This document shows positions 6,820 to 18,519 of a DNA stretch of 24,114 nucleotides, piece by piece. Origin of the DNA: a virus. Below the pieces are notes generated by a model that made no database searches, was not told the origin of the DNA, and saw only the letters and a program-made list of their open reading frames with translations. Positions within the stretch are counted from its first letter, which is position 1, and every line of letters starts with the position of its first letter. The stretch lies in the IMG/VR virus record IMGVR_UViG_3300034198_006610, positions 1 to 24,114 of that record. One strand, 5' to 3'. The position numbers and the translations under genes are program-made.

Positions 6820-6977
6820 ACAACCTCCTTAATTCGATCAGCTTCCTCACATATAAAATCAAACTGCATATCCAAAACATTAAAGTGTTTACCCGCTTCA
6901 GCTTCGGCATCATCGCAGTTATCTGCCTCCACTTCTACATATGCACACCCAGTTACTAATACATTCCATCTGCTCAT
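6816..6977 (-). CDS. Tiny acidic protein, 53 residues
   Basis: The reading frame begins MSRWNVLVTGCAYVEVEADN and ends EEADRIKEVV. It has a beta-rich N-terminal half, then an acidic helix with DDAEAEAGKHF. The alternation suggests a beta-beta-alpha mini-fold. The start follows AAGGAGGTTGT, and both ends overlap their neighbours by ATGA. Function unknown. Confidence 0.6.
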   Translation of the reverse strand: MSRWNVLVTGCAYVEVEADNCDDAEAEAGKHFNVLDMQFDFICEEADRIKEVV

Positions 6978-7747
6978 ACAACCTCCTTTATTGCTTGAAC
7001 ATATTTGTTAACAGTCGAACCTTCTAGACCGCACGCTGTATTTACTTCTAACACATAGCACTTATCTTGTGCCTCATTCCATATAACATCTACTGCACCG
7101 AAGTCTAGCCCTAACGCATTAACGGCAGACACAGCCACGCCCCTAAGATCATGAGGTTCTTCGATGTCACCTCTACAAAAGACATACCCATTTGCATGGT
7201 TTCTAATATAAGGGTGATGGTCATCAACAGCAGAACTCCTACGCTTTTCTTGTATGTCAAGAATTTTACTATTAAATACATGAACTCTGAACTCCTTTTG
7301 TTTGCGTATGTATTTTGTATACAACGGGGCATCTACCAACTGATCGTGTTGCTTGGCTACAACAATACCCTGACCCGAGTGAGCGGTAAGTAGGGTGCGA
7401 CACATAACCTTATGCCCTTGGTCTATCCACATCTGTGCGTCTTCTTTGAATGTTGAATAGGGTGGGTGTGGAACTTCGCACGCAACAAAGGCTTGGATAC
7501 TACTAAGCTTGTTAGCGGCTAAGTGAACTGCAACAGGGTGATTGAGAATACGACAGCCCCCCTCAAAGTCCACGCTACTACTACCCCAGTTAATAACAAT
7601 ACGACTGGGTTTACACAACCCGACCCGCTCAGGGTTAATGAACAACACATTACGACCCAGCTCTTGCGTCAACGCATCACGCAATAGCCTTGCACTTCTA
7701 CTGCCTCGCTTGTAGGGTGCGATTGCCACCCTTGATGTGTTTGTCAT
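6974..7747 (-). CDS. ATP-grasp ligase (RimK-like)
   Basis: A 257-residue ATP-grasp enzyme. Members join a carboxylate to an amine through an acyl-phosphate using ATP. Visible landmarks: a pre-ATP-grasp N-terminal domain (1-80) ending at AANK (K80); a glycine-rich loop, LLTAHSGQGIVV (117-130), over the phosphates; KYIRKQKEFRVHVF (145-158), the RimK-like central strand; and the metal-binding D220 (FGAVDVIW) and E234/N236 (YVLEVNTACG). All core residues are present, so it should be active. The substrate is not visible in the sequence. Two further amide-chemistry enzymes, a class-II glutamine amidotransferase and an amidoligase, lie just upstream on the same strand, which suggests one pathway. 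Confidence 0.87.
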   Translation of the reverse strand: MTNTSRVAIAPYKRGSRSARLLRDALTQELGRNVLFINPERVGLCKPSRIVINWGSSSVDFEGGCRILNHPVAVHLAANKLSSIQAFVACEVPHPPYSTFKEDAQMWIDQGHKVMCRTLLTAHSGQGIVVAKQHDQLVDAPLYTKYIRKQKEFRVHVFNSKILDIQEKRRSSAVDDHHPYIRNHANGYVFCRGDIEEPHDLRGVAVSAVNALGLDFGAVDVIWNEAQDKCYVLEVNTACGLEGSTVNKYVQAIKEVV

Positions 7748-7748
7748 A

Positions 7749-7970
7749 CTAAGTATGCTCCCTCAATGTAATTTCATGATCACCCATATCGACAGTCAAG
7801 CGACCATCAGGGTGGGTTTTTAATTCGGCTTTGCCAGTAGCAATAGCCTCAAGCATTACGCATAGTATTACCCCTCCTCTCATAGCCTTGCGTAAGTTAG
7901 TATGAAAATAGCCCGCCGCAACTGTCGCTATGCAAGCCCATGCCAACAAAAATACTTCGCTATATTCCAT
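7749..7970 (-). CDS. Small membrane protein
   Basis: A 73-residue protein starting MEYSEVFLLAWACIATVAAG. Residues about 6-22 form a membrane helix, and a second weak hydrophobic patch lies at 35-45. The remaining C-terminal half is soluble and beta-like (GRLTVDMGDHEITLREHT). A TTG at 7976 could start it two codons earlier. The ATG at 7970 is preferred because AAGGG lies 7 bases ahead of it, while the TTG would be too close. It lies between the ATP-grasp gene and an unknown gene. Function unknown. Confidence 0.6.
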   Translation of the reverse strand: MEYSEVFLLAWACIATVAAGYFHTNLRKAMRGGVILCVMLEAIATGKAELKTHPDGRLTVDMGDHEITLREHT

Positions 7971-8277
7971 GGTCAACCCTTTCTAGTTCTTTGATTTGCT
8001 TGAGCAAATCCCGTATCTGCTCGTCGTTTTGATAGGTGTATACATCTGTGCCTAGTGTTGTTGAGTAATCCAAATAGTAGTGGTCATCTTCATCTACAAA
8101 CCTAATGACCGCCAACTCATACGGCTTGCTTAAATCACCAAACACAGATACAGTATCGCCACCCCATACAACACTAGCCCCGTAGTTATTTGGGAATCTA
8201 TATATGCGTTGTGTAGCGTTGTCTATGAACTGGTGAGGTCGCTCTACTGCTATGTGCTCCTTACTATGATCTTTCAT
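7960..8277 (-). CDS. Protein of unknown function
   Basis: A 105-residue protein with many aromatic and acidic residues in what read as beta strands (SVVWGGDTVSVFGDL, DDHYYLDYSTTLGTDVYTYQ). It ends in a short helix, LLKQIKELERV. The start follows GAGGAGGAATAAAT, the tail of the previous tiny gene. No family recognised. Its place inside the ATP-grasp/amidotransferase block makes a link to that pathway possible but unproven. Confidence 0.65.
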   Translation of the reverse strand: MKDHSKEHIAVERPHQFIDNATQRIYRFPNNYGASVVWGGDTVSVFGDLSKPYELAVIRFVDEDDHYYLDYSTTLGTDVYTYQNDEQIRDLLKQIKELERVDHGI

Positions 8278-8279
8278 AT

Positions 8280-8441
8280 TTATTCCTCCTCTATTTCTTT
8301 AGCCCATGCATCGAGTTCTGGTTCAGACATACTTTCTAGCACCGACTCAGCCAGCACATATGCTGGTGCATCTAACAATCTGTCCCACATACTGTCGTAT
8401 GTGTCAGGCTTATACTTCTTTTTTATATCTTTTATATCCAT
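8280..8441 (-). CDS. Tiny acidic protein, 53 residues
   Basis: The reading frame begins MDIKDIKKKYKPDTYDSMWD and ends DAWAKEIEEE. It is basic at the start and strongly acidic and helical in the second half. It lies directly downstream of the glutamine amidotransferase gene. Its final codons, GAG GAG GAA TAA, provide the ribosome binding site of the next gene, so the acidic terminus may not be selected for protein function. Unknown role. Confidence 0.6.
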   Translation of the reverse strand: MDIKDIKKKYKPDTYDSMWDRLLDAPAYVLAESVLESMSEPELDAWAKEIEEE

Positions 8442-8450
8442 ACTGCCTCC

Positions 8451-9611
8451 TTAGTTAATTGCTGTTCTAACAGGCTTGGTACTCTCAAGCCAAGGGAAAG
8501 ACTGACGAGCGGTAACAAAGTCAGTAACAACACGCTCGAACCAACTGCTGTCAATCATCTCATCGAGTGCCATGTAACTGATCTCCATGAAGTTGTCGAT
8601 ACCGAACTCCTCAACGAACTCGTAAGCGGCGGTGCGACTGATGTGCTTGATCTCGAACTGTGCCTCAATCTCCATAAGCAAGTCCTCCATCACATCGTCC
8701 ATCTCTTTCTCCGACACACCATAGACCTCGGTGCGTGGCACACCATCTTCACCCATAACTGTGTACTCGCCATCAATGAAGTCACCATCTTCATCTTCAA
8801 AGCCACCAACAGGCGGGACATACACAGGGCGATCATATTGTGGTCGTGTTGCAGTTGCGGTTGAAGCTTTGCTATACCCACGCCAGTAGTCTTCATCATC
8901 ATAGCTATCGTAGCCAGTCATATAAGTTGATGACCAACTCTTGTAGTTTGATTTAGGATAGACTGGTTTGTATGGGGTGGACTCGATCTCGTCTAGTGCA
9001 GTATCGTAGTCATCAATGAAGTCCTTAGATACCTTGGTTGGGCTAGACCATGCGTATGTATTTGATAACCAACGACCGCCCCAATACACACCTGAGCTTT
9101 GGTTGACAGTCTGTATACGACCCGTGCTATCCATGAGCACGAACTTGTTTGACCCACCGATATGATCACCCACAATCTCAGCGAACGCATCGGTAAACGC
9201 AAAGTCAATGTTGTTAGCAAGCATAGGGCGTAGATAGTCACGGATATAGTGCCATGTATCTGACTTGGTTAGGTCACCCGCATTACCTGTGGATAGCACG
9301 CCGTTGTGCATGAGCCATACATCTAGACCATGCTCGGACTTGTTAAACACTTCGTATGGGTGGCAGTTCTCCATGTCGATATTGCCGTGGGTTTTCATAC
9401 GCAGATGGAACGCACAATCGTAACCATCAATGTGGTTGTTGTAGAACTCGACAAATTCCTGTGCATTGGCAGGAAGAATCTTCTCGATAAGAAGTTCGCC
9501 ATCTACACTACGCATGATACCAACGCCATCGGAGTTGGTTGCATAAAAATCCTCAAGCCATTCTTGCGTGAGGGTCGGGGCTGTTGCTGACTGAACAATT
9601 AATAAACACAT
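8451..9611 (-). CDS. Class-II glutamine amidotransferase
   Basis: A 386-residue protein beginning Met-Cys. After Met removal, Cys2 becomes the N-terminal nucleophile of the Ntn-hydrolase glutaminase fold. Supporting motifs: DGVGIM (28-33), FHLRMKTHG (68-76, substrate carboxylate-binding arginine), ENCHPYEV (81-88) and LMHNGVL (100-106). Class-II domains release ammonia from glutamine for a partner ligase. Residues about 1-190 make the catalytic domain. Residues 190-290 are tyrosine-, serine- and aspartate-rich linker, and about 300-386 is a separate acidic helical region that may contact partners. No synthase domain is fused, so a separate acceptor enzyme is expected; the amidoligase upstream and ATP-grasp protein downstream are candidates. 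A YafJ-like peptidase or amidase role is also possible. Confidence 0.87.
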   Translation of the reverse strand: MCLLIVQSATAPTLTQEWLEDFYATNSDGVGIMRSVDGELLIEKILPANAQEFVEFYNNHIDGYDCAFHLRMKTHGNIDMENCHPYEVFNKSEHGLDVWLMHNGVLSTGNAGDLTKSDTWHYIRDYLRPMLANNIDFAFTDAFAEIVGDHIGGSNKFVLMDSTGRIQTVNQSSGVYWGGRWLSNTYAWSSPTKVSKDFIDDYDTALDEIESTPYKPVYPKSNYKSWSSTYMTGYDSYDDEDYWRGYSKASTATATRPQYDRPVYVPPVGGFEDEDGDFIDGEYTVMGEDGVPRTEVYGVSEKEMDDVMEDLLMEIEAQFEIKHISRTAAYEFVEEFGIDNFMEISYMALDEMIDSSWFERVVTDFVTARQSFPWLESTKPVRTAIN

Positions 9612-9642
9612 AATTTACTTCCTTTCATTTGATTGGTTTGTT

Positions 9643-9658
9643 GGATAGGTTTCTATCC
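9643..9658. repeat. Palindrome copy 1, GGATAG-GTTT-CTATCC
   Basis: A 16-bp inverted repeat with 6-bp arms and central GTTT. It lies 31 bp in front of the glutamine amidotransferase start. A TATAAG hexamer, a possible -10, abuts it on the minus strand at 9660-9665, overlapping the end of the amidoligase gene. There is no T-run, so it is not a terminator. Confidence 0.9.
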
Positions 9659-9660
9659 GC

Positions 9661-11145
9661 TTATACTTCAACTGATACTGCCTGTTTGTCCATGCGTGGG
9701 TTGGGCTTGACGACTGCCTGTTTATCTAGGCTGAATCCCTTAGACCGCAAGAATGATCGTAGATAGATAGTGTCCTTGCGATTGTCAGGCTGGCTAATAA
9801 ACTTGAGGAAGTTATCAGAGGTTAAGTCTTGTTGCCCTGTGTCACGAGTAAAGAACCATGACGCATATGTAAACTCCAAGCAAGCCATGATGGTCTCATA
9901 GCGTAGCGTACCCTTGAACAGTCTGAACTCTACTGTGCGTTCGGGTTGGAAGTTGACTGACTCGTAGCGATCCTCGTTGAGCCTACGCATACCATCGGAC
10001 TTAGCGTGCTTGAGCCATGAGTAGTCAGCGGTCTTGTTCTTGACTTGGCTGTATCTGCTTGAGTCACGGCGGGCAATAGCCCTGAACAGGCGTTGGTTTC
10101 TACTATCGTGCATAAACAAGATTAGCTTAGCGGCATGGAACATACTCATACCCTTCTTGCAGATATGCACATGAAGACCACAAGTCTTGGTATCGTGCGA
10201 CTTCATACCCTCGAATGGTTTCTTAAAGAACGCTAGTTGCTTAGCGTGTACATCAAGACCCGTATAGCCTGTGACCATCTCGAAGCCGTGGTTGAGCGAG
10301 CCGTCTTCCTCAAGTAAAGCATAGGTATGAACCTTGCCTGTTGACTCGTCAGTATAGTTACCGATCTCTTCCACTAACTGCTCGGCTTTCTCAGAGCGTG
10401 GGGTATCACCGACAGACTCCATCTCCAACTCTAGCCCCATGAAGACAGGGGTTTTGCGTTGTGAATACTTAGTCGGTATGAGTCCGAGCTTGGACTTGCT
10501 ACTGTGATAACCGCCGATCGGACCACGATCGTCATCATGGTCGTCATCATCATCATCGTCATGGTCAGGCTCTTCGTCATCTTCATGCACCACGCAATCA
10601 TGGTAGTCAGACCAACGATAGTTATTGTCCCGACAATCTGAACAAATCCAGCGATCGCCGTTATACACCCACGAGCCATCATGCTCAGGCTCAATATAGT
10701 CGCAGTCAGAACAGTAGTCATACTCAGGTGCATCGGGGAATTTGTCTGAGTCGTTAAGGAAATCGCACCACTCACTAGCCCCTCGTCTATCCCTGATCTC
10801 GCTATTGTCGTTGAGTAATTGGACTAGAGTGTTATGATCTTGGGTCTTGAAACACTCGGCTATACCCTTGCCGATCTCGTAGTAGTTGCGTCTGTAATTC
10901 ATGAGTAAAATATAGTGATCGGTAGTAGAACCGCTCAAGTGCCTCCGATACGACTGGGTAGCCGTAAGGTTGCGTTTGAGTTGGCTACGACCTACCCCCA
11001 TATACTCCGCAACAGTCCACAACTCGGGGCGACGCATATGCTCCAATTTGTAGCGGAAGAACTCACGGGTTAAGACTGCTGTTGCGTCGCGATACTTAAT
11101 TTCCATCGCCGCAATTTCTGATACTGTGTATGTTTGTGATGGCAT
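9661..11145 (-). CDS. Amidoligase-family (COOH-NH2 ligase) protein with zinc ribbon
   Basis: A 494-residue protein. Residues about 1-135 are helical, with a possible helix-turn-helix (TVAEYMGVGRSQLKRNL). Two cysteine knuckles, C145-x2-C148 and C168-x2-C171, suggest a zinc ribbon. An aspartate/histidine low-complexity run (about 188-206) follows. The C-terminal 260 residues carry amidoligase signatures: MGLELEMES with E239, E241 and E243; EEDGSL and GFEMVT; CGLHVHI (322-328); and TVEFRLFKGTL (404-414). These recall the glutamate-cysteine-ligase-like fold, whose members form amide bonds between a carboxylate and an amine using ATP. The acidic triplets would hold the metals. Phage amidoligases are known next to glutamine amidotransferases and ATP-grasp enzymes, as here. 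The exact substrate is unknown; the family call rests on motifs alone. Confidence 0.75.
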   Translation of the reverse strand: MPSQTYTVSEIAAMEIKYRDATAVLTREFFRYKLEHMRRPELWTVAEYMGVGRSQLKRNLTATQSYRRHLSGSTTDHYILLMNYRRNYYEIGKGIAECFKTQDHNTLVQLLNDNSEIRDRRGASEWCDFLNDSDKFPDAPEYDYCSDCDYIEPEHDGSWVYNGDRWICSDCRDNNYRWSDYHDCVVHEDDEEPDHDDDDDDDHDDDRGPIGGYHSSKSKLGLIPTKYSQRKTPVFMGLELEMESVGDTPRSEKAEQLVEEIGNYTDESTGKVHTYALLEEDGSLNHGFEMVTGYTGLDVHAKQLAFFKKPFEGMKSHDTKTCGLHVHICKKGMSMFHAAKLILFMHDSRNQRLFRAIARRDSSRYSQVKNKTADYSWLKHAKSDGMRRLNEDRYESVNFQPERTVEFRLFKGTLRYETIMACLEFTYASWFFTRDTGQQDLTSDNFLKFISQPDNRKDTIYLRSFLRSKGFSLDKQAVVKPNPRMDKQAVSVEV

Positions 11146-11181
11146 ACTATAAACTCCTTCTGTTTATGTTGATGGTTTGAT

Positions 11182-11199
11182 GGGATAGAAACCTATCCC
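11182..11199. repeat. Palindrome copy 2, GGGATAG-AAAC-CTATCCC
   Basis: An 18-bp perfect inverted repeat with 7-bp arms. It lies 36 bp in front of the amidoligase-like gene and directly after the stop of a small membrane-peptide gene. Its orientation is opposite to copy 1, judged by the central AAAC against GTTT. Confidence 0.9.
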
Positions 11200-11201
11200 G
11201 T

Positions 11202-11309
11202 TTATTTAAACAACAGCCCTACTAAATACCTAGTTACTTGACCTACGATAAAAATACTGCAAAACAATAAAGCTAACCTACTAAATAAATCAAAGTTAAA
11301 GTAACGCAT
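11202..11309 (-). CDS. Hydrophobic 35-residue peptide
   Basis: A short frame, MRYFNFDLFSRLALLFCSIF followed by IVGQVTRYLVGLLFK. It carries a central stretch of about 18 hydrophobic residues and could be a single membrane helix. The ATG follows AGGAGGTTGT, the same strong ribosome-binding cassette used at four other gene starts, which is the main argument that it is translated. Function unknown. Confidence 0.5.
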   Translation of the reverse strand: MRYFNFDLFSRLALLFCSIFIVGQVTRYLVGLLFK

Positions 11310-11317
11310 ACAACCTC

Positions 11318-11500
11318 CTATTTAAGTTTTGTTTCCCAAACTCGGTTCTTTAATTCCTCACGCATTAGCCTACGCACTAACTGACTAGCGTTAATGTCTA
11401 GGCTTTCGCAATAAGAATCCCATGCTTGTTTAAGTTCTAAGTCCATACAAAAAGAAACATGGGGTGTGGCTGGTTTAGTGGGTTTAGTTTTTGCTTTCAT
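11318..11500 (-). CDS. Ribbon-helix-helix DNA-binding protein
   Basis: A 60-residue protein. A basic, proline- and threonine-rich arm (MKAKTKPTKPATP) leads into a strand, HVSFCMDLE, and two helices, LKQAWDSYCESLDI and NASQLVRRLMREELKN. This is the layout of Arc/CopG/MetJ-type dimers, in which paired strands read the major groove. Such proteins bind short palindromes and often repress phage operons. It is one candidate for binding the GGATAG palindromes nearby; that link is inference. Start chosen after AAAGGAGGTTGT. Confidence 0.8.
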   Translation of the reverse strand: MKAKTKPTKPATPHVSFCMDLELKQAWDSYCESLDINASQLVRRLMREELKNRVWETKLK

Positions 11501-11514
11501 ACAACCTCCTTTAG

Positions 11515-12054
11515 TTAATCGTCTTCGTCATCTAGCACGAGCCGATACTTCATGATGTCCCCACCGCTTTCACCTGACACCATCCAGTCCCAAGACCTAG
11601 CCCTGCGTGTATCTTCTTGCGGGATAGGGTAGTCTCGTAGCCATATCTTTACTATGGGGTTTGTTTCCGCTAGTGCTAACGGCACACCGCCGAGGCTAGT
11701 TTCTAACTCCTCGCCCCTATCAAACTTAATCCCCCACTCAACCCATGGGTTTTCTAGCTTGATAATGCGATACCCCACAATCGCATCCTCACAATGCGGG
11801 TTATCACCCCACCATAGACGCCCACCTTTAGCCTTACCTTGCAGACCGCTACGCAGTATGAATCTAATAGTGGTGTCTAACTCTACCCCCGCAGGTCGCA
11901 AGTCTTCTTTAGTTACTGCTTGATCTCGATCAAGGGGGTGTAGCTTTTTATAGGCGTTGGGGATTTTGATTTCAGGTGGGGGTGGTGCTGGTCTAGATGC
12001 AATTTCTCCCCGCAACTGCTCAATCATTTGTTCCACAGTTAAATCGTTAGGCAT
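11515..12054 (-). CDS. Phage protein of unknown function
   Basis: A 179-residue protein. A proline-rich N-terminal linker (RPAPPPPEIKIP) follows a short helix. The body contains LWWGDNPHCEDAIVGYRII and later WDWMVSGESGGDIMKYRLV. These two related units, W...(D/G)xI.xYR, resemble the tryptophan-then-DIIAYR element found in assorted small phage proteins of unknown role. The C terminus is acidic (LVLDDEDD). It overlaps the preceding gene's stop by 8 bases and is led by AAAGGAGG. Confidence 0.65.
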   Translation of the reverse strand: MPNDLTVEQMIEQLRGEIASRPAPPPPEIKIPNAYKKLHPLDRDQAVTKEDLRPAGVELDTTIRFILRSGLQGKAKGGRLWWGDNPHCEDAIVGYRIIKLENPWVEWGIKFDRGEELETSLGGVPLALAETNPIVKIWLRDYPIPQEDTRRARSWDWMVSGESGGDIMKYRLVLDDEDD

Positions 12055-12388
12055 TTGCTACCTCCTTTCTCATCTTCTCTCGTTCAACAAACCTCTCAAA
12101 CGGGAACTCTTTCATACCCGCTATCAAAGCATCTATATACCCGAAGTCATAACTAACCACGCTTTCACACAGGCTTTCTAACTCCCACAAGTATTTCAAC
12201 TCAGGGGCAAACTCTGTGTATTCAGTATCTGGAAATGTGATTTCTTCAAACTTAGTCAAGCGAACCCATTGCCTATCGCTTTCATACATAACCTTACTGT
12301 ATTCAAACTTAACTTCCTTATTGCCTATTTGAATCGTGGCTTTTGGTGCGTTGGCTAACCAATCTATTACTGCCTGTTCGTATGTCAT
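12047..12388 (-). CDS. Protein of unknown function, 113 residues
   Basis: The start at 12388 (MTYEQAVIDWLANAP) is preferred over the upstream ATG at 12415 because AAAGGA lies at proper distance and the longer form would overlap the previous gene. Content: a helix, a beta-rich middle (ATIQIGNKEVKFEY, RQWVRLTKFEEITF) and a charged helix at the end (FVEREKMRKEVANA). Not recognised. Confidence 0.65.
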   Translation of the reverse strand: MTYEQAVIDWLANAPKATIQIGNKEVKFEYSKVMYESDRQWVRLTKFEEITFPDTEYTEFAPELKYLWELESLCESVVSYDFGYIDALIAGMKEFPFERFVEREKMRKEVANA

Positions 12389-12401
12389 ACGCTTTCCTTT
12401 G

Positions 12402-12623
12402 TTAGTTGGTTGCATTTAGAACTTCGTTGAACTCGACTGTTAGGTCGTGCTTTTCTTCGGAAGTCAGACCTTTCAAGGCTGGGCTTAAATCAAACTCCCA
12501 CCCACCAGCCCACTTACTATCTGAGTGGTAGGTATGCGTTGCCTTAATAGGTGTGCCTTCTACATCTACTACATACTCTTGACATACTTTTTTGTATACC
12601 AATGTAGGGTTCTTTATACGCAT
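12402..12623 (-). CDS. Small protein of unknown function
   Basis: A 73-residue protein. Beta-rich opening (KNPTLVYKKVCQEYVVDVEG), a WAGGWEFDL turn, then a helix (TSEEKHDLTVEFNEVL). An AAAGGA ribosome binding site leads the ATG. No family recognised. Confidence 0.6.
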   Translation of the reverse strand: MRIKNPTLVYKKVCQEYVVDVEGTPIKATHTYHSDSKWAGGWEFDLSPALKGLTSEEKHDLTVEFNEVLNATN

Positions 12624-12659
12624 GGTTTTTCCTTTCGTTTGTTAGTGGTTACTATGGGT

Positions 12660-13262
12660 TTACTTGGATAGGTTTCTATCCCTGTCGTATTTGTTTAGTT
12701 CATTGGTTCTCCTTTGTTGTGAATTTTTATACTGCGTTTCCAAAACCGCCAAGTGGTCTAGGCGTTGTTGTATTAGTTCCTGTCTTTCTTGTTCATTACT
12801 CCACTTGGTTTGTCTTGTGGGTGTGATTAGCGGATAGGTTTCTATCCTGTGCTTGAGGGTTCGGTATGCGTTGCCTGCCCGTCTTACTTCTTTATCTAGG
12901 CTTGCCTTGAGTGCATCTCGTTCCTTGTTTTTTTCTTTTTGCCAGCGTTCCCGCATGATGCGTTTACGGGATAGGTTTATATCCCTTCTTTTTTGTTCGA
13001 TTAGCAGTTCCCCTAAGTAGGGGTTTATGCGTTTGTTTGTGATCTTGTTGCGTAGTTCCTTGAGGGTGAGCTTTGATCGTGGTTTGCGTTTTGGTTGACA
13101 CGATTTGCATAAAGAGCTGATGACCGTAGTTCCTGTTTCTACTCGCCTGTTTAGGGCTTTACTGTATTGTTCGGCAGTTAGCCTACGCTTGAACTCGGTT
13201 CTCTCCTTCACTTCGTTACACTTCTTGCATTTTATAAAGTCGGGCTTGGTTAGTTTTTTCAT
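12660..13262 (-). CDS. Basic coiled-coil protein with paired-cysteine zinc motif
   Basis: A 200-residue, strongly basic protein. CKKC (C12, C15) and CKSC (C52, C55) form a likely zinc-binding module around residues 10-57. The remaining 140 residues are lysine-, arginine- and glutamate-rich helix (KRIMRERWQKEKNKERDALK...) that should form a coiled coil and bind nucleic acid. Three copies of the GGATAG palindrome lie inside the reading frame (12666, 12832, 12968), and a fourth lies 17 bp before the start. This density makes it a suspect for a self-regulating binder of that element, although nothing shows this directly. Function unknown; zinc-finger nuclease accessory or regulator are both possible. 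Confidence 0.65.
   Translation of the reverse strand: MKKLTKPDFIKCKKCNEVKERTEFKRRLTAEQYSKALNRRVETGTTVISSLCKSCQPKRKPRSKLTLKELRNKITNKRINPYLGELLIEQKRRDINLSRKRIMRERWQKEKNKERDALKASLDKEVRRAGNAYRTLKHRIETYPLITPTRQTKWSNEQERQELIQQRLDHLAVLETQYKNSQQRRTNELNKYDRDRNLSK
12666..12681. repeat. Palindrome copy 3, GGATAG-GTTT-CTATCC (coding)
   Basis: Lies in the last codons of the zinc-motif gene, where it encodes DRNLS just before the stop. It is also 42 bp in front of the next gene start at 12623. Confidence 0.9.
12832..12847. repeat. Palindrome copy 4, GGATAG-GTTT-CTATCC (coding)
   Basis: Lies inside the zinc-motif gene in a different reading frame from the other coding copies, encoding RIETYP. Confidence 0.9.
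12968..12985. repeat. Palindrome copy 5, GGGATAG-GTTT-ATATCCC (coding, one mismatch)
   Basis: Lies inside the zinc-motif gene and encodes RDINLS. One arm base differs (A for C), so it is the most degenerate copy. Confidence 0.8.
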
Positions 13263-13279
13263 ACAAGTTCCTTCGGTTC

Positions 13280-13295
13280 GGATAGGTTTCTATCC
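13280..13295. repeat. Palindrome copy 6, GGATAG-GTTT-CTATCC
   Basis: Lies 17 bp in front of the zinc-motif gene start at 13262, close to its ribosome binding site. Confidence 0.9.
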
Positions 13296-13478
13296 CGTTT
13301 AGCCAAAAAAGTAGACAAATGTCCACCTTGTAACACATAGTTGTCCACAGTAGTTGTCCTATGTTTGAGCCTTATACTACTACGCTTTTTACCCATGCTA
13401 ACACAGCTGTCTACGCAATTCCAGCAATTTAAAGACTAAGAAAGTAAGACAGAAAGAAACAGTCCCACTTATTTACCC

Positions 13479-13517
13479 TTATATATATATATTTAGAATT
13501 TAGTATTTATATATATA
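13479..13517. other. AT-rich tract, possible DNA-unwinding element
   Basis: 39 bases with only two G and no C. Alternating TATATATATAT runs lie at both ends, with TTTAGAATTTAG between them. It is the lowest-melting segment of the window and lies in the middle of the non-coding stretch with the repeated TGTCCAC sites. Confidence 0.5.
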
Positions 13518-13571
13518 GGTGTGCTGGGAATGTGGTAGACGCACATAGGATAAAGGGTTGCGGGCGTCAAG

Positions 13572-13585
13572 GTAGTGTCCACTAC
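13572..13585. repeat. Inverted repeat GTAGTG-TC-CACTAC
   Basis: 6-bp arms around a 2-base centre. It includes a TGTCCAC unit shared with 13320-13326 and with the DnaA-like site at 13341-13349. Likely a protein binding site. Confidence 0.55.
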
Positions 13586-13609
13586 GGATTTAAACTAGAC
13601 AATTACCAA

Positions 13610-13628
13610 GTGCTTATTTTTTAAGCAC
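13610..13628. repeat. Inverted repeat GTGCTTA-TTTTT-TAAGCAC
   Basis: Perfect 7-bp arms around five T. Neither strand has a T-run after the stem, so a transcription terminator is unlikely. It lies 12 bp from palindrome copy 7. Confidence 0.6.
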
Positions 13629-13640
13629 ACTAGCAGAAAC

Positions 13641-13658
13641 GGGATAGAAACCTATCCC
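13641..13658. repeat. Palindrome copy 7, GGGATAG-AAAC-CTATCCC
   Basis: A perfect 18-bp copy in the non-coding stretch, 13 bp beyond the stop of the gene ending at 13672. It is the only intergenic copy not placed just ahead of a gene start. Confidence 0.9.
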
Positions 13659-13671
13659 AAACCCCTTCCAA

Positions 13672-13938
13672 TTACAGCCAAACGAATCCACAACGGGCTA
13701 ACTGATCTGAGGTAATGCTGACCCAGCCTGAGTCTTTCCCATCTCTCCTGAGTAGGCTACGGCGTTTCCTATCGGTTCGTGCAAGTGAGGTGTATGGGTG
13801 CTTGATTACTTCGCCTATCTCATTACCTTTCTTGCGGACTATGAGCCATACATTACTACGCCCTATGATGGGGTGTTCTGCGTTTTCAAGCATGAGTTGC
13901 TTTAATACAGCATTGGGTTTGAGGGTGATTGATTTCAT
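13672..13938 (-). CDS. Basic protein of unknown function, 88 residues
   Basis: Starts MKSITLKPNAVLKQLMLEN and is rich in arginine and lysine around residues 50-66 (RTDRKRRSLLRRDGK), so nucleic-acid binding is plausible. The middle (NVWLIVRKKGNEIGEVI) looks like a beta hairpin. The start is coupled by ATGA to the helix-turn-helix gene upstream, with AAAGG in front. Not recognised. Confidence 0.6.
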   Translation of the reverse strand: MKSITLKPNAVLKQLMLENAEHPIIGRSNVWLIVRKKGNEIGEVIKHPYTSLARTDRKRRSLLRRDGKDSGWVSITSDQLARCGFVWL

Positions 13939-14090
13939 GATGTTGCCTTTCTTTTGTTGGTTGATACTAGGTTTAGATACTGCTCTACTTCGGGGGTGCT
14001 TAACTGCAACTGCCTTGCTATCGCCATGATGGTGTAGCCCTGTGCATATAAAGCCTCACAGTCAAAGGCTAGGTCTTTCATCGCACTCAT
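13935..14090 (-). CDS. Small helix-turn-helix protein
   Basis: A 51-residue frame starting MSAMKDLAFDCEALYAQGY. The stretch GYTIMAIARQLQLSTPEVEQ (about 18-37) is a good helix-turn-helix: a hydrophobic first helix with alanine at the core, a turn after QLQL, and a recognition helix. It resembles the short resolvase/sigma-like HTH modules in phages. Coupled by ATGA at both ends. It could be a regulator of this operon; the target is unknown. Confidence 0.65.
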   Translation of the reverse strand: MSAMKDLAFDCEALYAQGYTIMAIARQLQLSTPEVEQYLNLVSTNKRKATS

Positions 14091-14257
14091 AGCATACCGC
14101 CTGCTAGATAACAGCCTAGCTTAGCCATGAGTGGGGTTATGACTTCGGGGTTTGCGTCTTCGTCATTACGCAATGCCAGCACTATGTAGGCTATTTCTTG
14201 GTCGGTTAGATCTACCTGTGCGAACACAGGGGTTGTGGGTTTAATCGGCTTTTTCAT
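14087..14257 (-). CDS. Small protein of unknown function, 56 residues
   Basis: Starts MKKPIKPTTPVFAQVDLTDQ and ends LGCYLAGGML. A basic, proline-rich opening leads into an acidic helical part (DQEIAYIVLALRNDEDANPE). The stop is coupled by ATGA to the helix-turn-helix gene, and the start overlaps the upstream gene by 4 bases. Not recognised. Confidence 0.6.
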   Translation of the reverse strand: MKKPIKPTTPVFAQVDLTDQEIAYIVLALRNDEDANPEVITPLMAKLGCYLAGGML

Positions 14258-14424
14258 TCGAATTTCCCTTTCTTGTAGTCGTTGAGGTTAAACGACATAA
14301 AGACTTCGCCCATTGTTATGGGCTTGTGGCGGTCAGGCTTAGCCTTGGTGTCGGATAGAATCCTATCCCGTTGTTCTCTAGCCATTTGACGCATGGCTAG
14401 TTGTTGGGCTTTGCTTAGATGCAT
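14254..14424 (-). CDS. Small protein of unknown function, 56 residues
   Basis: Start chosen at 14424 (MHLSKAQQLAMRQMAREQRD), led by AAGGAG at the right distance. A longer frame from 14484 would overlap the upstream gene and lacks a binding site. It has a charged N-terminal helix, then GEVFMSFNLNDYKKGKFE. Palindrome copy 8 lies within it and encodes DRILS. Function unknown. Confidence 0.6.
   Translation of the reverse strand: MHLSKAQQLAMRQMAREQRDRILSDTKAKPDRHKPITMGEVFMSFNLNDYKKGKFE
14353..14368. repeat. Palindrome copy 8, GGATAG-AATC-CTATCC (coding)
   Basis: Inside the 56-residue gene at 14254-14424, in the frame that reads DRILS. The centre AATC differs from the common AAAC. Confidence 0.9.
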
Positions 14425-14435
14425 GGTAGTTCTCC

Positions 14436-14579
14436 TTATGGTCGTGATGAAATCATTTTGAACTGCGTGTTGAGTTTGTCCCATACTTCGCCAGCTTCTT
14501 CTAGACCATGCACATCAGTCTTGAAAATGAAAGCGGTTGATGGGTTTGAATCAGGCATTACAAAGTAAATGGTAAACAT
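14436..14579 (-). CDS. Tiny protein of unknown function, 47 residues
   Basis: Frame beginning MFTIYFVMPDSNPSTAFIFK and ending FKMISSRP. The start follows TAAGGAGTTGTT. It has a beta-strand-like opening and a helix (HGLEEAGEVWDKLNTQ). Palindrome copy 9 lies 19 bp in front of the start. Confidence 0.55.
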   Translation of the reverse strand: MFTIYFVMPDSNPSTAFIFKTDVHGLEEAGEVWDKLNTQFKMISSRP

Positions 14580-14598
14580 AACAACTCCTTAGTTTGTG

Positions 14599-14614
14599 GA
14601 TAGAAACCTATCCG
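14599..14614. repeat. Palindrome copy 9, GGATAG-AAAC-CTATCC
   Basis: Intergenic, 19 bp ahead of the start at 14579 and 35 bp after the stop of the gene ending at 14650. Confidence 0.9.
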
Positions 14615-14649
14615 ATTTGACATAAAACTAAACAGCGAGAAAGCCTCGT

Positions 14650-15078
14650 TCACTTAACGATACGGAAGAACTTAGCTTGCTCTGCTTTACTCAACTGCTC
14701 AAACAACTCAACAACCTTATCGACTGTGACCTTGACTTGCTTGGATACCCCTGACTTCTCGGCTCTCACAATGTGATACCCAAACTGAGAGTTGGCTCTC
14801 ATGTATGCCTTCTGATGCTCAGGCTTTCTCTCGGTTCTCGGTTGGGATAGGATTCTATCCGCTTCCTTGCTAGTGATACTCAAGAACCCCATGAGGTAGT
14901 TCACTCTCCACTCTTGAGCCCATTCCTTCTGGGCTTCCTTATCTTCCTTGATGTATTGCTTGTGCCATACCTCTGACTCCTCAAGTGTGATACGGGCTTG
15001 CTGTCCTAGACCTAAAGCGAATTGGTCATAGGTGATGTCAGAACCAACTGAGGTTGTTAAGTAAATTGCTTTCTTCAT
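14650..15078 (-). CDS. First gene of the leftward operon, unknown function
   Basis: A 142-residue protein starting MKKAIYLTTSVGSDITYDQF. An upstream in-frame TTG at 15120 is rejected: it lies inside a hairpin, whereas the ATG at 15078 has AGGAG eight bases ahead. The protein is charged and mostly helical (KEDKEAQKEWAQEWRVNYL, KVVELFEQLSKAEQAKFF). It is the first gene behind the leftward promoter and the leader hairpin, the position where many phages place early host-takeover or antitermination proteins. Copy 10 of the palindrome lies inside it, encoding DRILS. No family recognised. Confidence 0.7.
   Translation of the reverse strand: MKKAIYLTTSVGSDITYDQFALGLGQQARITLEESEVWHKQYIKEDKEAQKEWAQEWRVNYLMGFLSITSKEADRILSQPRTERKPEHQKAYMRANSQFGYHIVRAEKSGVSKQVKVTVDKVVELFEQLSKAEQAKFFRIVK
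14845..14860. repeat. Palindrome copy 10, GGATAG-GATT-CTATCC (coding)
   Basis: Inside the first leftward gene, in the frame that reads ADRILSQ. Its centre is the complement of that in copy 8. Confidence 0.9.
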
Positions 15079-15090
15079 TTGATAACTCCT

Positions 15091-15118
15091 AATAAAAAGC
15101 CCAGCTAATCGGCTGGGC
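15091..15118 (-). terminator. Hairpin with T-run in the leader of the leftward operon
   Basis: On the minus strand, GCCCAGC (15118-15112), a 6-base loop, GCTGGGC (15105-15099), then TTTTTATT. The stem is 7 bp with five G:C pairs and is followed at once by the T-run, the form of an intrinsic terminator. It lies just before the ribosome binding site of the first leftward gene, so it would act as an attenuator that must be overcome. Confidence 0.75.
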
Positions 15119-15125
15119 AACGAAT

Positions 15126-15141
15126 GGATAGCAATCTATCC
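15126..15141. repeat. Palindrome copy 11, GGATAG-CAAT-CTATCC
   Basis: Intergenic, 47 bp ahead of the start at 15078 and 8 bp from a TATACT hexamer on the minus strand (15150-15155). If that hexamer is a -10, the palindrome sits on the first transcribed bases, a typical operator position. Confidence 0.85.
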
Positions 15142-16427: not shown

Positions 16428-17956
16428 ATTTAGATTCTTTGACCCCAGAAGAAGCTCTTGCTGCGCAGTTGGCGCTAAAAGACATGAGTACGGAAGAGAA
16501 GTTATTATTTTTAGCGGATCTTGAAGAGCAAGAACACCGCGTGCACCTAAATAAAGCGCAAAATCAACCACTTGAGTTTGCAAAAGCAGTATATCCAGGC
16601 TTTAAGATAGGGCCCCAGCACCGCAAACTAGCTAAAATCTTCCAAGATGTGGTTGAGGGTCGCAAAAAGCGCGTAATTATTAATATTGCACCACGTATGG
16701 GCAAATCGGAGTTTTCCAGCTATCTGTTTCCGGCATACTTTCTAGGTCAGTACCCCGAGAAGAAAATCATTATGGCCACGCACACCGCAGGGCTCTCGGA
16801 AGACTTTGGACGGAGAGTGAGGAATTTAATTGATTCGGATGAATACAAGAGTGTGTTCCCAGGAACAGTCGTTGCAGACGACCAAAAAGCAGCGGGTAAG
16901 TGGTCTACATCTACTGGCGGCCAGTATTATGCTGCTGGTGTTGGGGGAGCCTTGGCAGGACGAGGCGCTGATTTGTTTGTTATTGATGACCCCCATTCTG
17001 AACAAGATATGAAGGCGAACTCAAGGCTGGCGTTTGATAACGCGTGGTCTTGGTTCCAAACGGGTCCGCTGCAGCGGTTAATGCCGGGGGGTGCGATCAT
17101 AGTAATTATGACTAGATGGTCTTTGCTTGACCTTACTGGGCGCATTATCGACTACAACATAAAAAACCCCCATACAACCCCGTGGGAGATTGTTGAACTA
17201 CCGGCGATCCTTAATGAAGATACAGAAAAAGAAAAGTCGTTGTGGCCAGAGCAGTGGCCGCTTGAAACCTTAAAAGCTACAAAGGCAGTACTAGATCCGC
17301 GTTATTGGAACGCCCAGTACATGCAGAACCCCACGTCCGATATGAGCGCTGTCATTGGGCGAAAAGACTGGATGATGTGGGAACAGGAAGACCCGCCTAC
17401 CGTGGAGTACATAATTCAGAGTTGGGATACGGCGTTTGAAACAAAAACAACATCTGACTATTCCGCATGCACAACCTGGGGTGTTTGGTATAACGAGGAG
17501 GATGGCAATAGCCCAAACATAATCTTGCTCGACGCATTTAAAGACCGCATGGCATTCCCGGAACTAAAGGCTACGGCGCTAAAGCACTACAAAGAGTGGA
17601 ACCCCGATGCGTTCATCGTGGAGAAAAAAGCATCGGGAGCCCCGTTAATTCAAGAACTTAGGATGATGGGTATACCAGTCCAAGAGACCAACCCATCGCG
17701 CGGTAATGACAAGATGGTGCGGCTAAATGCGGTATCTGATTTATTTTCTAGCGGTAAAGTCTGGGCTCCAGATAGGCGGTGGGCTAGGGACGTGATAGAA
17801 GAACTGGCGTCGTTCCCGGTTGGCGAGCATGATGACTATGTGGATACGACAACCCAAGCGCTTATGCGCTATCGCCAGGGCGGGTTTATTAGTTTGGACT
17901 CGGATGAAAAAGATGACTTGCAGTACAAATATAGGCGGAAGGCTGCGTACTACTGA
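16424..17956 (+). CDS. Terminase large subunit
   Basis: A 510-residue packaging motor with ATPase and nuclease domains. ATPase: the Walker-A-like loop APRMGKSEF (89-97) carries K94; Walker B LFVIDDPH (184-191) with D188/D189; the coupling region IIVIMTRWS (225-233) follows. Nuclease (RNase H-like): SWDTAF with D335, FIVEKKASG with E400, and HDDYVDTT with D470/D471/D474 complete the acidic site. All key residues are present. The enzyme pumps DNA into the prohead through the portal and cuts it at the end of packaging. It is coupled to the small subunit before it and overlaps the oxygenase gene after it by one base (TGATG). Confidence 0.97.
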   Translation: MNLDSLTPEEALAAQLALKDMSTEEKLLFLADLEEQEHRVHLNKAQNQPLEFAKAVYPGFKIGPQHRKLAKIFQDVVEGRKKRVIINIAPRMGKSEFSSYLFPAYFLGQYPEKKIIMATHTAGLSEDFGRRVRNLIDSDEYKSVFPGTVVADDQKAAGKWSTSTGGQYYAAGVGGALAGRGADLFVIDDPHSEQDMKANSRLAFDNAWSWFQTGPLQRLMPGGAIIVIMTRWSLLDLTGRIIDYNIKNPHTTPWEIVELPAILNEDTEKEKSLWPEQWPLETLKATKAVLDPRYWNAQYMQNPTSDMSAVIGRKDWMMWEQEDPPTVEYIIQSWDTAFETKTTSDYSACTTWGVWYNEEDGNSPNIILLDAFKDRMAFPELKATALKHYKEWNPDAFIVEKKASGAPLIQELRMMGIPVQETNPSRGNDKMVRLNAVSDLFSSGKVWAPDRRWARDVIEELASFPVGEHDDYVDTTTQALMRYRQGGFISLDSDEKDDLQYKYRRKAAYY

Positions 17957-18519
17957 TGTTTAAAAACTCATACTGGCGCTTTGAAAAAGCTCTAAGCCCT
18001 GAATTTTGTAACTTGGTCATTAAAGAAACCGACTGGGAAAGTGGTATTACAGCGGGTGTTGGCGCAGGCATGGACCCCACAAAACCATCATCTGTCCAAG
18101 ATAGCATGCGTAAAACTGATATAGTATGGGTACCACTGGAGACTCCAATTGCTTGCGTAGCCCAAACCTACATAAATTATGCTAATGGCTTAGCCGCATG
18201 GAACTTTTCAGTGGCTTTTATTGAGCAGATGCAGCTTGGTAGGTATACGCAAGGCGGCCACTATGACTGGCACTACGATATTTTCCATCCAGATCAAAAC
18301 AACCTGCAGCGCAAGCTAAGCGTTAGTATTTTATTAAACGACCCTTTGGAATATGAGGGTGGTGAATTACAATTGGAAGGTGTGGATGAATGCAACTTGC
18401 TGAAAAACCAAGGGGATATAGTAGTGTTCCCTTCTTTTGCTAAGCATCGCGTTGCACCAATTATTAACGGAATTAGATATTCAGCAGTTACTTGGGCACT
18501 AGGCCCAGCTTTTAAATAG
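17956..18519 (+). CDS. 2-oxoglutarate/Fe(II)-dependent oxygenase
   Basis: A 187-residue single-domain oxygenase of the prolyl-4-hydroxylase-like family. The iron triad is HYD at 106-108 (H106, D108, in HYDWHYDIF) and H164 (FAKHRVAP). R174 (GIRYSAVTW) binds the 2-oxoglutarate carboxylate. The core strands LSVSILLNDP and EGGELQL are typical. Such enzymes hydroxylate a protein or nucleobase using oxygen and 2-oxoglutarate. Relatives are common in aquatic phages, where targets are mostly unknown. It overlaps the terminase stop by one base and precedes the portal gene, so it is made together with the head proteins; a virion protein as substrate is a reasonable guess only. Confidence 0.9.
   Translation: MFKNSYWRFEKALSPEFCNLVIKETDWESGITAGVGAGMDPTKPSSVQDSMRKTDIVWVPLETPIACVAQTYINYANGLAAWNFSVAFIEQMQLGRYTQGGHYDWHYDIFHPDQNNLQRKLSVSILLNDPLEYEGGELQLEGVDECNLLKNQGDIVVFPSFAKHRVAPIINGIRYSAVTWALGPAFK

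What the first reader, a model, noticed from the sequence alone, without database searches (positions are those of the whole stretch)
6974..11145. Amidoligase, glutamine amidotransferase and ATP-grasp ligase in one phage operon
Three enzymes of amide-bond chemistry lie on one strand within about 4.2 kb: an ATP-grasp ligase, a class-II glutaminase with Cys2, and an amidoligase-like protein with zinc ribbon. Published comparative genomics of ATP-grasp and glutamine-synthetase-like amidoligases predicted that such sets build or modify peptides. Here the small genes between (7749-8441) could supply substrate or adaptor. The target might be a host protein, the cell wall, a phage peptide or, less likely, DNA. 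No characterised phage pathway I know contains exactly this order.
Basis: partly seen in the sequence, partly recalled or inferred. Interest (0 to 1): 0.72.

Follow-up and report, generated by a model that had tools for sequence, protein, structure and literature searches.

The report
Phage amide-bond enzyme pair plus ligase
A lake-water phage carries a two-gene amide-forming enzyme pair (a glutamine-using subunit next to a glutamine-synthetase-like ligase) plus an added amino-acid ligase. It is a stripped-down variant of a gene set already known from other phages, and the pair also travels as swappable cargo on bacterial mobile elements; nobody has shown what any of these sets makes.

Summary
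The three enzymes are real and correctly placed. 9661-11145 is a PF12224 amidoligase with a glutamine-synthetase-like fold and an N-terminal zinc ribbon. 8451-9611 is a class-II glutaminase with its catalytic motifs intact. 6974-7747 is a RimK-like ATP-grasp ligase. The order is not new: LUZ24, phiEco32 and UFV-P2 carry amidoligase, glutaminase, small gene(s), ATP-grasp in that order, plus a COOH-NH2 ligase and a gamma-glutamyl cyclotransferase that are absent here and from near-full-length relatives. The conserved unit is two genes. The glutaminase follows the amidoligase in 55 of 55 distinct loci where the next gene is readable, whereas ATP-grasp is present in only 12 and joined at least twice. 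Compact sets carry the zinc ribbon on the amidoligase (55/55, none on the glutaminase); classical sets carry it on the glutaminase (43/51, none on the amidoligase). The small genes look like passengers. In Polynucleobacter the pair lies beside an integrase on mobilizable elements (next to SIR2-HerA defence genes in one), as an 88%-identical cassette amid 69-72% surroundings. Most likely the pair is a glutamine-dependent amidoligase acting on a host-cell target, with ATP-grasp adding an amino acid; the target is unknown. New variant of a known, uncharacterised kind.

The parts
9661..11145 (-). Amidoligase (PF12224, glutamine-synthetase-like fold), 494 aa, first enzyme gene of the module in the direction of transcription
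   Evidence: PF12224 E 1.5e-5 above cut-off; phrog_16683 E 5e-29 and phrog_2443 E 3e-12; fold match YbdK Z 11.6, plant GCL 10.8, GS about 10
10633..10713 (-). Zinc ribbon CSDC-x19-CSDC (residues 145-171) of the amidoligase
   Evidence: C145, C148, C168, C171 invariant in 47 homologues; motif in 55/55 compact-type amidoligases and 0/51 classical ones, shuffle expectation under 0.5%
9730..10470 (-). GS-like catalytic domain of the amidoligase (residues 226-472), motifs GLELEME, DGS, CGLHVH, EFRLF
   Evidence: E239, E241, E243, D281, S283, H325, H327, R393, E406, R408 invariant; aligned range
8451..9611 (-). Class-II glutaminase (Ntn, Cys2), 386 aa
   Evidence: profile match to GlmS glutaminase E 1e-17; fold match GlmS Z 10.8, EgtC Z 10.6; follows the amidoligase in 55/55 compact loci
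9009..9611 (-). Glutaminase domain (residues 1-201): Cys2, HxRxxTHG (R71,T74,H75,G76), NCHP (H84), HNG (N103,G104), SDT (D118)
   Evidence: all invariant in 47 homologues and, except D118, aligned to the same motifs of E. coli GlmS
8451..9008 (-). C-terminal extension of the glutaminase, partly disordered (218-281 pLDDT under 50) then helical; no zinc ribbon here, unlike classical modules
6974..7747 (-). RimK-like ATP-grasp ligase, 257 aa; ExN metal motif E234/N236 and D220 kept, linker K80 kept, Arg117 in place of the RAGNYA lysine
   Evidence: phrog_2599 E 6.5e-76; RimK E 2e-7 with alignment; invariants; tree places it among classical-module phages
8280..8441 (-). 53-aa ORF between the enzymes; not detected in relatives, probably a passenger
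   Evidence: no family; no relative in 14 loci
7960..8277 (-). 105-aa ORF, phrog_4074; a general small phage protein, not specific to the module
   Evidence: phrog_4074 E 7e-17; found in Listeria, Streptococcus, Bacillus and Pseudomonas phages
7749..7976 (-). 75-aa ORF with hydrophobic N-terminus; variably present in the clade
   Evidence: sequence
11183..11198 (.). Palindrome GGATAG-N4-CTATCC just upstream of the amidoligase start (one of 10 copies)
9643..9658 (.). Palindrome GGATAG-N4-CTATCC between amidoligase and glutaminase

Best explanation
The core is a two-subunit, glutamine-dependent amidoligase. The glutaminase (Cys2) splits glutamine and passes ammonia to the adjacent GS-like amidoligase, which uses ATP to activate a carboxylate and converts it to an amide. 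The zinc ribbon, carried by one partner or the other, docks the subunits or recognises the substrate. In this phage a RimK-like ATP-grasp ligase, acquired from a classical phage module, is added and would ligate an amino acid (probably glutamate-like) to a carboxylate of the same or a related target. The target is probably a host-cell component (envelope peptide or host protein), and the benefit is to the resident mobile element. Shown: gene identities, intact catalytic motifs, obligatory pairing, separability of ATP-grasp, purifying selection. Inferred: ammonia transfer, zinc-ribbon role, target class, benefit.
For: Pairing 55/55 in distinct viral loci plus 7/7 prokaryotic loci where the next gene is readable. 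All glutamine-binding and oxyanion motifs invariant. GS/GCS-type fold and invariant Glu/His/Arg set in the amidoligase. Zinc ribbon alternates between the two partners, which suggests they work as one complex. ATP-grasp absent from 16/16 pair-only contigs searched whole and nested among classical modules in its tree. No third gene is linked in more than 17 of 55 loci. Pair on integrative mobilizable elements in Polynucleobacter, so no virion is needed. Precedents from general knowledge: MurT/GatD and AsnB/LtsA amidate cell-wall carboxylates with glutamine; RimK adds glutamate.
Against: No assay exists for any member. The closest folds of the amidoligase (YbdK, glutamate-cysteine ligase) use amines, not ammonia. 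The glutaminase is structurally as close to EgtC, a gamma-glutamyl hydrolase, as to GlmS. A distant amidoligase in C. difficile phage AR1086-1 has no adjacent glutaminase. Bacillota amidoligases are instead next to a cyclotransferase-like ORF. No interface or channel was modelled.
Confidence: 0.42

Rival explanations
1. Gamma-glutamyl cycle: the amidoligase (YbdK/GCS-like) joins glutamate or another carboxylate to an amine, and the Ntn protein works as an EgtC-like gamma-glutamyl hydrolase that removes or trims the group; in classical modules the cyclotransferase does a similar job.
For: Fold ties with EgtC (Z 10.6 vs GlmS 10.8) and best amidoligase fold match YbdK/GCL. Classical modules carry a gamma-glutamyl cyclotransferase, and six of eight Bacillota amidoligase loci pair with a GGCT-like ORF (one of the six weak, E 3e-4) instead of a glutaminase.
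Against: Compact modules lack the cyclotransferase in all 8 IMG/VR contigs searched (the window included) and in ctgrD200 and MEP401. By sequence the motifs fit glutaminases such as GlmS best, but these motifs are shared by both functions.
Confidence: 0.3
2. Protein tagging: one of the small genes between the enzymes is a peptide substrate that is extended, amidated or conjugated (Pup- or RimK-like tagging).
For: RimK-like ATP-grasp; distant PafA/Dop fold similarity; the acidic 53-aa ORF ends in EIEEE.
Against: The 53-aa ORF was not found in relatives and the 75-aa ORF is variable; the 105-aa gene is a general phage protein; no third gene is consistently linked to the pair.
Confidence: 0.08
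3. Phage DNA hypermodification: the set decorates a modified base through amide bonds.
For: Phages are known to use amide chemistry on bases (general knowledge).
Against: The pair occurs on integrative mobilizable elements in Polynucleobacter, with no phage genome to protect. No linked base-modification gene stood out among conserved neighbours.
Confidence: 0.06

Closest known systems
Pseudomonas phage LUZ24 gp16-gp22 and Pseudomonas phage UFV-P2 ORF21-29
   Same: Amidoligase, class-II glutaminase, small gene(s), RimK-like ATP-grasp, one strand, same order
   Different: They also carry a COOH-NH2 ligase, a ~190-aa protein and a gamma-glutamyl cyclotransferase, and the zinc ribbon is on the glutaminase in LUZ24; here those genes are missing and the ribbon is on the amidoligase
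Escherichia phage phiEco32 gp77-gp86 (predicted cell-wall or peptide modification, Iyer et al. 2009 as cited in PMC10580990 and PMC11318856)
   Same: Same enzyme classes and order
   Different: Larger set, ATP-grasp only 37% identical, zinc ribbon on glutaminase; never assayed as far as I could find
Methylophilales phages MEP401/MEP402, Podoviridae ctgrD200 and Mycobacterium phage Marvin gp105-gp106
   Same: Compact amidoligase-glutaminase pair with zinc ribbon on the amidoligase
   Different: No phrog_2599 ATP-grasp in MEP401 or ctgrD200, none among the annotated neighbours in MEP402 or Marvin; Marvin has a ribbon on both proteins
Escherichia coli RimK (S6--L-glutamate ligase)
   Same: ATP-grasp fold, ExN metal motif, linker lysine
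   Different: Arg117 replaces the RAGNYA lysine, no S6 link, low NCBIfam scores far below cut-offs
MurT/GatD and AsnB/LtsA cell-wall amidation systems (general knowledge; MurT/GatD paper PMC3267633)
   Same: Glutamine-dependent synthetase plus glutaminase subunit
   Different: Different folds for the synthetase (Mur ligase, Asn synthetase) and, for GatD, class I glutaminase; only an analogy

Membership tests
PF12224 Amidoligase_2 | Profile match above curated cut-off | tested here: met
   25.4 bits vs 22
PF12224 Amidoligase_2 | GS/GCS-like fold with conserved Glu/His/Arg motifs | tested here: met
   fold matches YbdK, GCL, GS; invariant residues
PF12224 Amidoligase_2 | ATP-dependent amide formation | not testable with these tools
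   no assay
Class-II glutamine amidotransferase (Ntn, GATase_4/6/7) | Catalytic Cys right after Met1 | tested here: met
   Met1-Cys2 invariant in 47 rows
Class-II glutamine amidotransferase (Ntn, GATase_4/6/7) | HxRxxTHG, NxHP, HNG motifs | tested here: met
Class-II glutamine amidotransferase (Ntn, GATase_4/6/7) | Pfam cut-off passed by the single sequence | tested here: not met
   PF13230 15.5 vs 23 bits; divergent member recognised by family profile and fold
RimK-like ATP-grasp (PF08443) | Profile match above curated cut-off and ExN motif | tested here: met
   22.2 vs 21 bits; E234, N236 invariant
R2K ATP-grasp clade | Loss of linker lysine, two lysines in RAGNYA domain (PMC4431377) | tested here: not met
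   Linker K80 invariant and Arg117 at the RAGNYA lysine position; R2K_3 match below cut-off
phiEco32/LUZ24 amidoligase module | Amidoligase, class-II glutaminase and ATP-grasp together, same order | tested here: met
phiEco32/LUZ24 amidoligase module | COOH-NH2 ligase (PF14395) and cyclotransferase (PF06094) present | tested here: not met
   absent from the window and from 7 related IMG/VR contigs, three of them about 67 kb, and from ctgrD200 and MEP401; detected in the three classical controls
Known anti-phage defence systems (PADLOC) | Match to a PADLOC model | tested here: inconclusive
   no PADLOC match for the Polynucleobacter pair, while its neighbours match SIR2 and HerA; window proteins themselves were not scanned against PADLOC

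The most novel reading that the evidence does not exclude
The amidoligase-glutaminase pair is a stand-alone mobile conflict system (phage exclusion or defence by modifying a host-cell target) that phages and integrative elements exchange as a two-gene cassette. ATP-grasp, COOH-NH2 ligase and cyclotransferase are optional extensions.
Probability: 0.3. Interest if true: 0.75.

Novelty: new variant of a known kind. Interest (0 to 1): 0.5.

Why it matters
Phage amidoligase sets have been known since 2009 with no demonstrated product that I could find. Reducing them to a two-gene core found in lytic phages, a tractable mycobacteriophage (Marvin gp105-106) and integrative elements makes the question testable with two proteins, and separates the core chemistry from optional ligases. 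If the pair excludes other mobile elements, it would be a new kind of amide-based host modification in conflict between mobile elements.

Tried and rejected
The key paper (Iyer et al. 2009, PMC3268129) and the Marvin paper (PMC3347389) are not held; their claims come second-hand. Profile search of the amidoligase against PDB sequences found nothing; only fold comparison worked. Small genes as substrates: rejected. R2K membership: rejected. A third obligatory partner: none found. RNA families: none in the window. Sigma-70 promoters in the region are no more frequent than chance; terminator-like sites were 6 against 3.1 expected. The zinc-ribbon exclusion is not universal: Marvin has ribbons on both proteins, and the exclusion rests on few evolutionary events because classical glutaminases form one clade. 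Class- and phylum-wide genome searches added few close relatives. The ATP-grasp of L010 is split in two frames, whereas near-identical L011 is intact; not interpreted. VIA/Foldseek did not test the amidoligase N-terminal helices or the glutaminase C-terminal extension on their own.
Full report
Observation. The three ORFs are present as stated on the minus strand: amidoligase 9661-11145, glutaminase 8451-9611, ATP-grasp 6974-7747. The window is a 24.1-kb virus record. Pfam and PHROGs place the first in PF12224 and the third in RimK-like ATP-grasp; the second is a divergent class-II glutaminase. Family profiles and predicted folds settle the weak cases. The amidoligase model aligns with YbdK, plant glutamate-cysteine ligase, glutamine synthetases and, at the end of the list, Dop. 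The glutaminase model aligns with GlmS and EgtC, and a broader family profile finds GlmS at E 1e-17 with Cys1, HxRxATHG, NxHP and HNG in register. The ATP-grasp finds RimK. All three genes are under purifying selection, dN/dS 0.10-0.25 against close relatives.

The order is known. LUZ24 gp18-gp19-gp20-gp21, phiEco32 gp84-gp83-gp82/81-gp80 and UFV-P2 ORF23/25/28 (PMC3890496) run amidoligase, glutaminase, small gene(s), ATP-grasp. Zobellviridae such as TC6, CVT22 and oyster-associated phages have the same enzymes in another order. All these classical modules also carry a PF14395 COOH-NH2 ligase and a ~190-aa protein, and many a gamma-glutamyl cyclotransferase. PF14395 and PF06094 are absent from the window and from seven related IMG/VR contigs (up to 67 kb) and from ctgrD200 and MEP401, while the same searches find them in the three classical controls.

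What is conserved. I collected relatives in IMG/VR and scored their ORFs with seven profiles. After clustering at 95% identity there were 114 amidoligase loci. Of 58 compact-type loci, 55 have a readable next gene and in all 55 it is the glutaminase; 12 also have the ATP-grasp. ATP-grasp was absent from all 16 pair-only contigs searched whole. In the ATP-grasp tree the window clade nests within classical lake-phage modules (99/91), and a second compact group is separate, so two joinings are forced. In the glutaminase tree the classical modules form one clade against all compact ones. The window set is therefore an amidoligase-glutaminase pair that took up an ATP-grasp from a classical module.

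Zinc ribbon. A CxxC-x(12-45)-CxxC motif lies in the amidoligase of 55/55 compact loci and in no compact glutaminase. In classical modules it lies in the glutaminase C-terminus in 43/51 and in no amidoligase; residue shuffling predicts under 0.5%. Marvin gp105 and gp106 both carry one. Because the classical glutaminases are one clade, this reflects few events, but it suggests one complex whose ribbon can sit on either partner.

Small genes. The 105-aa protein is phrog_4074, found in unrelated phages. The 53-aa ORF was not detected in relatives and the 75-aa ORF is variable. No other neighbour is linked in more than 17 of 55 compact loci. They are unlikely to be required substrates.

Beyond phages. 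One scan of 84,980 prokaryote species gave eight relatives; where the next gene is readable it is the glutaminase (7/7). Three are Polynucleobacter (3 of 186 genomes searched). In L188 and L190 the pair sits beside a tyrosine integrase on an element with a MobA-type relaxase, and in L190 also a T4SS coupling protein; in L188 the next genes are SIR2 and HerA, matching PADLOC models. L189 aligns with L188 across this region at 93% identity. Between L188 and L190 the pair block is 88% identical over 2.85 kb, whereas integrase and chromosomal flanks are 69-72% and the rest hardly aligns: a two-gene cassette appears to have been exchanged on its own. In Bacillota, other amidoligases sit beside a cyclotransferase-like ORF in six of eight loci, one of these matches weak, which keeps a gamma-glutamyl chemistry alive as rival.

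Mechanism. Shown: identities, motifs, pairing, separability, selection. Inferred: the glutaminase releases ammonia from glutamine for the amidoligase, which forms an amide at an ATP-activated carboxylate; the ATP-grasp adds an amino acid. A host-cell target is favoured because a mobilizable element has no virion or phage genome to modify. The main rival is gamma-glutamyl transfer and hydrolysis, since the glutaminase fold is as close to EgtC as to GlmS and the amidoligase is closest to YbdK and GCL. Published suggestions for phiEco32 (cell-wall change against superinfection) are predictions cited second-hand (PMC10580990, PMC11318856).

Verdict. Real, conserved and uncharacterised; a compact variant of a known phage module rather than a new order. 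The useful new points are the two-gene core, the ribbon alternating between partners, the two acquisitions of ATP-grasp, and the cassette on integrative elements.

Noticed in passing
window 9643-15141; relatives L002, L005, L004, L015, L009, L012, L010, L014, L016: A perfect palindrome GGATAG-N4-CTATCC occurs 10 times, only in this region (0 expected). L002 and L005 share it; L004/L015/L009/L012/L010 have GGACAG-N4-CTGTCC instead and L014/L016 GGGGAG-N4-CTCCCC, several at matching positions such as before the amidoligase and between amidoligase and glutaminase. Loops occur in both orientations. All copies in a genome change together, as expected of operators (or hairpins) co-evolving with a regulator.
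   Followed up: partly
L188 7489-10294 and 10750-13706; L190 7263-10095 and 10741-12696: The Polynucleobacter mobilizable element has a cargo slot beside the integrase holding the pair and SIR2-HerA in L188, or the pair and an unknown 416-aa protein with small ORFs in L190 (no Pfam, PADLOC or NCBIfam match for the 416-aa protein); a candidate place to look for new defence genes.
   Followed up: partly
L202-L209 (Bacillota genomes): Distant amidoligases of the classical type are next to a gamma-glutamyl-cyclotransferase-like ORF in six of eight loci (one weak match), not a glutaminase.
   Followed up: partly
L185 4674-5786 (Clostridioides phage AR1086-1): Amidoligase without adjacent glutaminase; the next gene showed no match to the glutaminase profiles and its sequence looks like a nucleotidyltransferase to me.
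   Followed up: no
L193 217-1864: A distant amidoligase-glutaminase pair on a 4-kb contig binned as Lokiarchaeota; may be viral or misbinned.
   Followed up: no
window 17956-18519: 2OG-Fe(II) oxygenase gene (phrog_61, E 7e-34) between terminase and portal genes on the + strand.
   Followed up: no
window 11318-11500: Ribbon-helix-helix protein gene (PF19839 above cut-off) upstream of the amidoligase; a possible binder of the palindromes.
   Followed up: no
L010 9452-10211: ATP-grasp gene split into two frames, while the near-identical L011 copy is intact; sequencing error or recent pseudogene.
   Followed up: no
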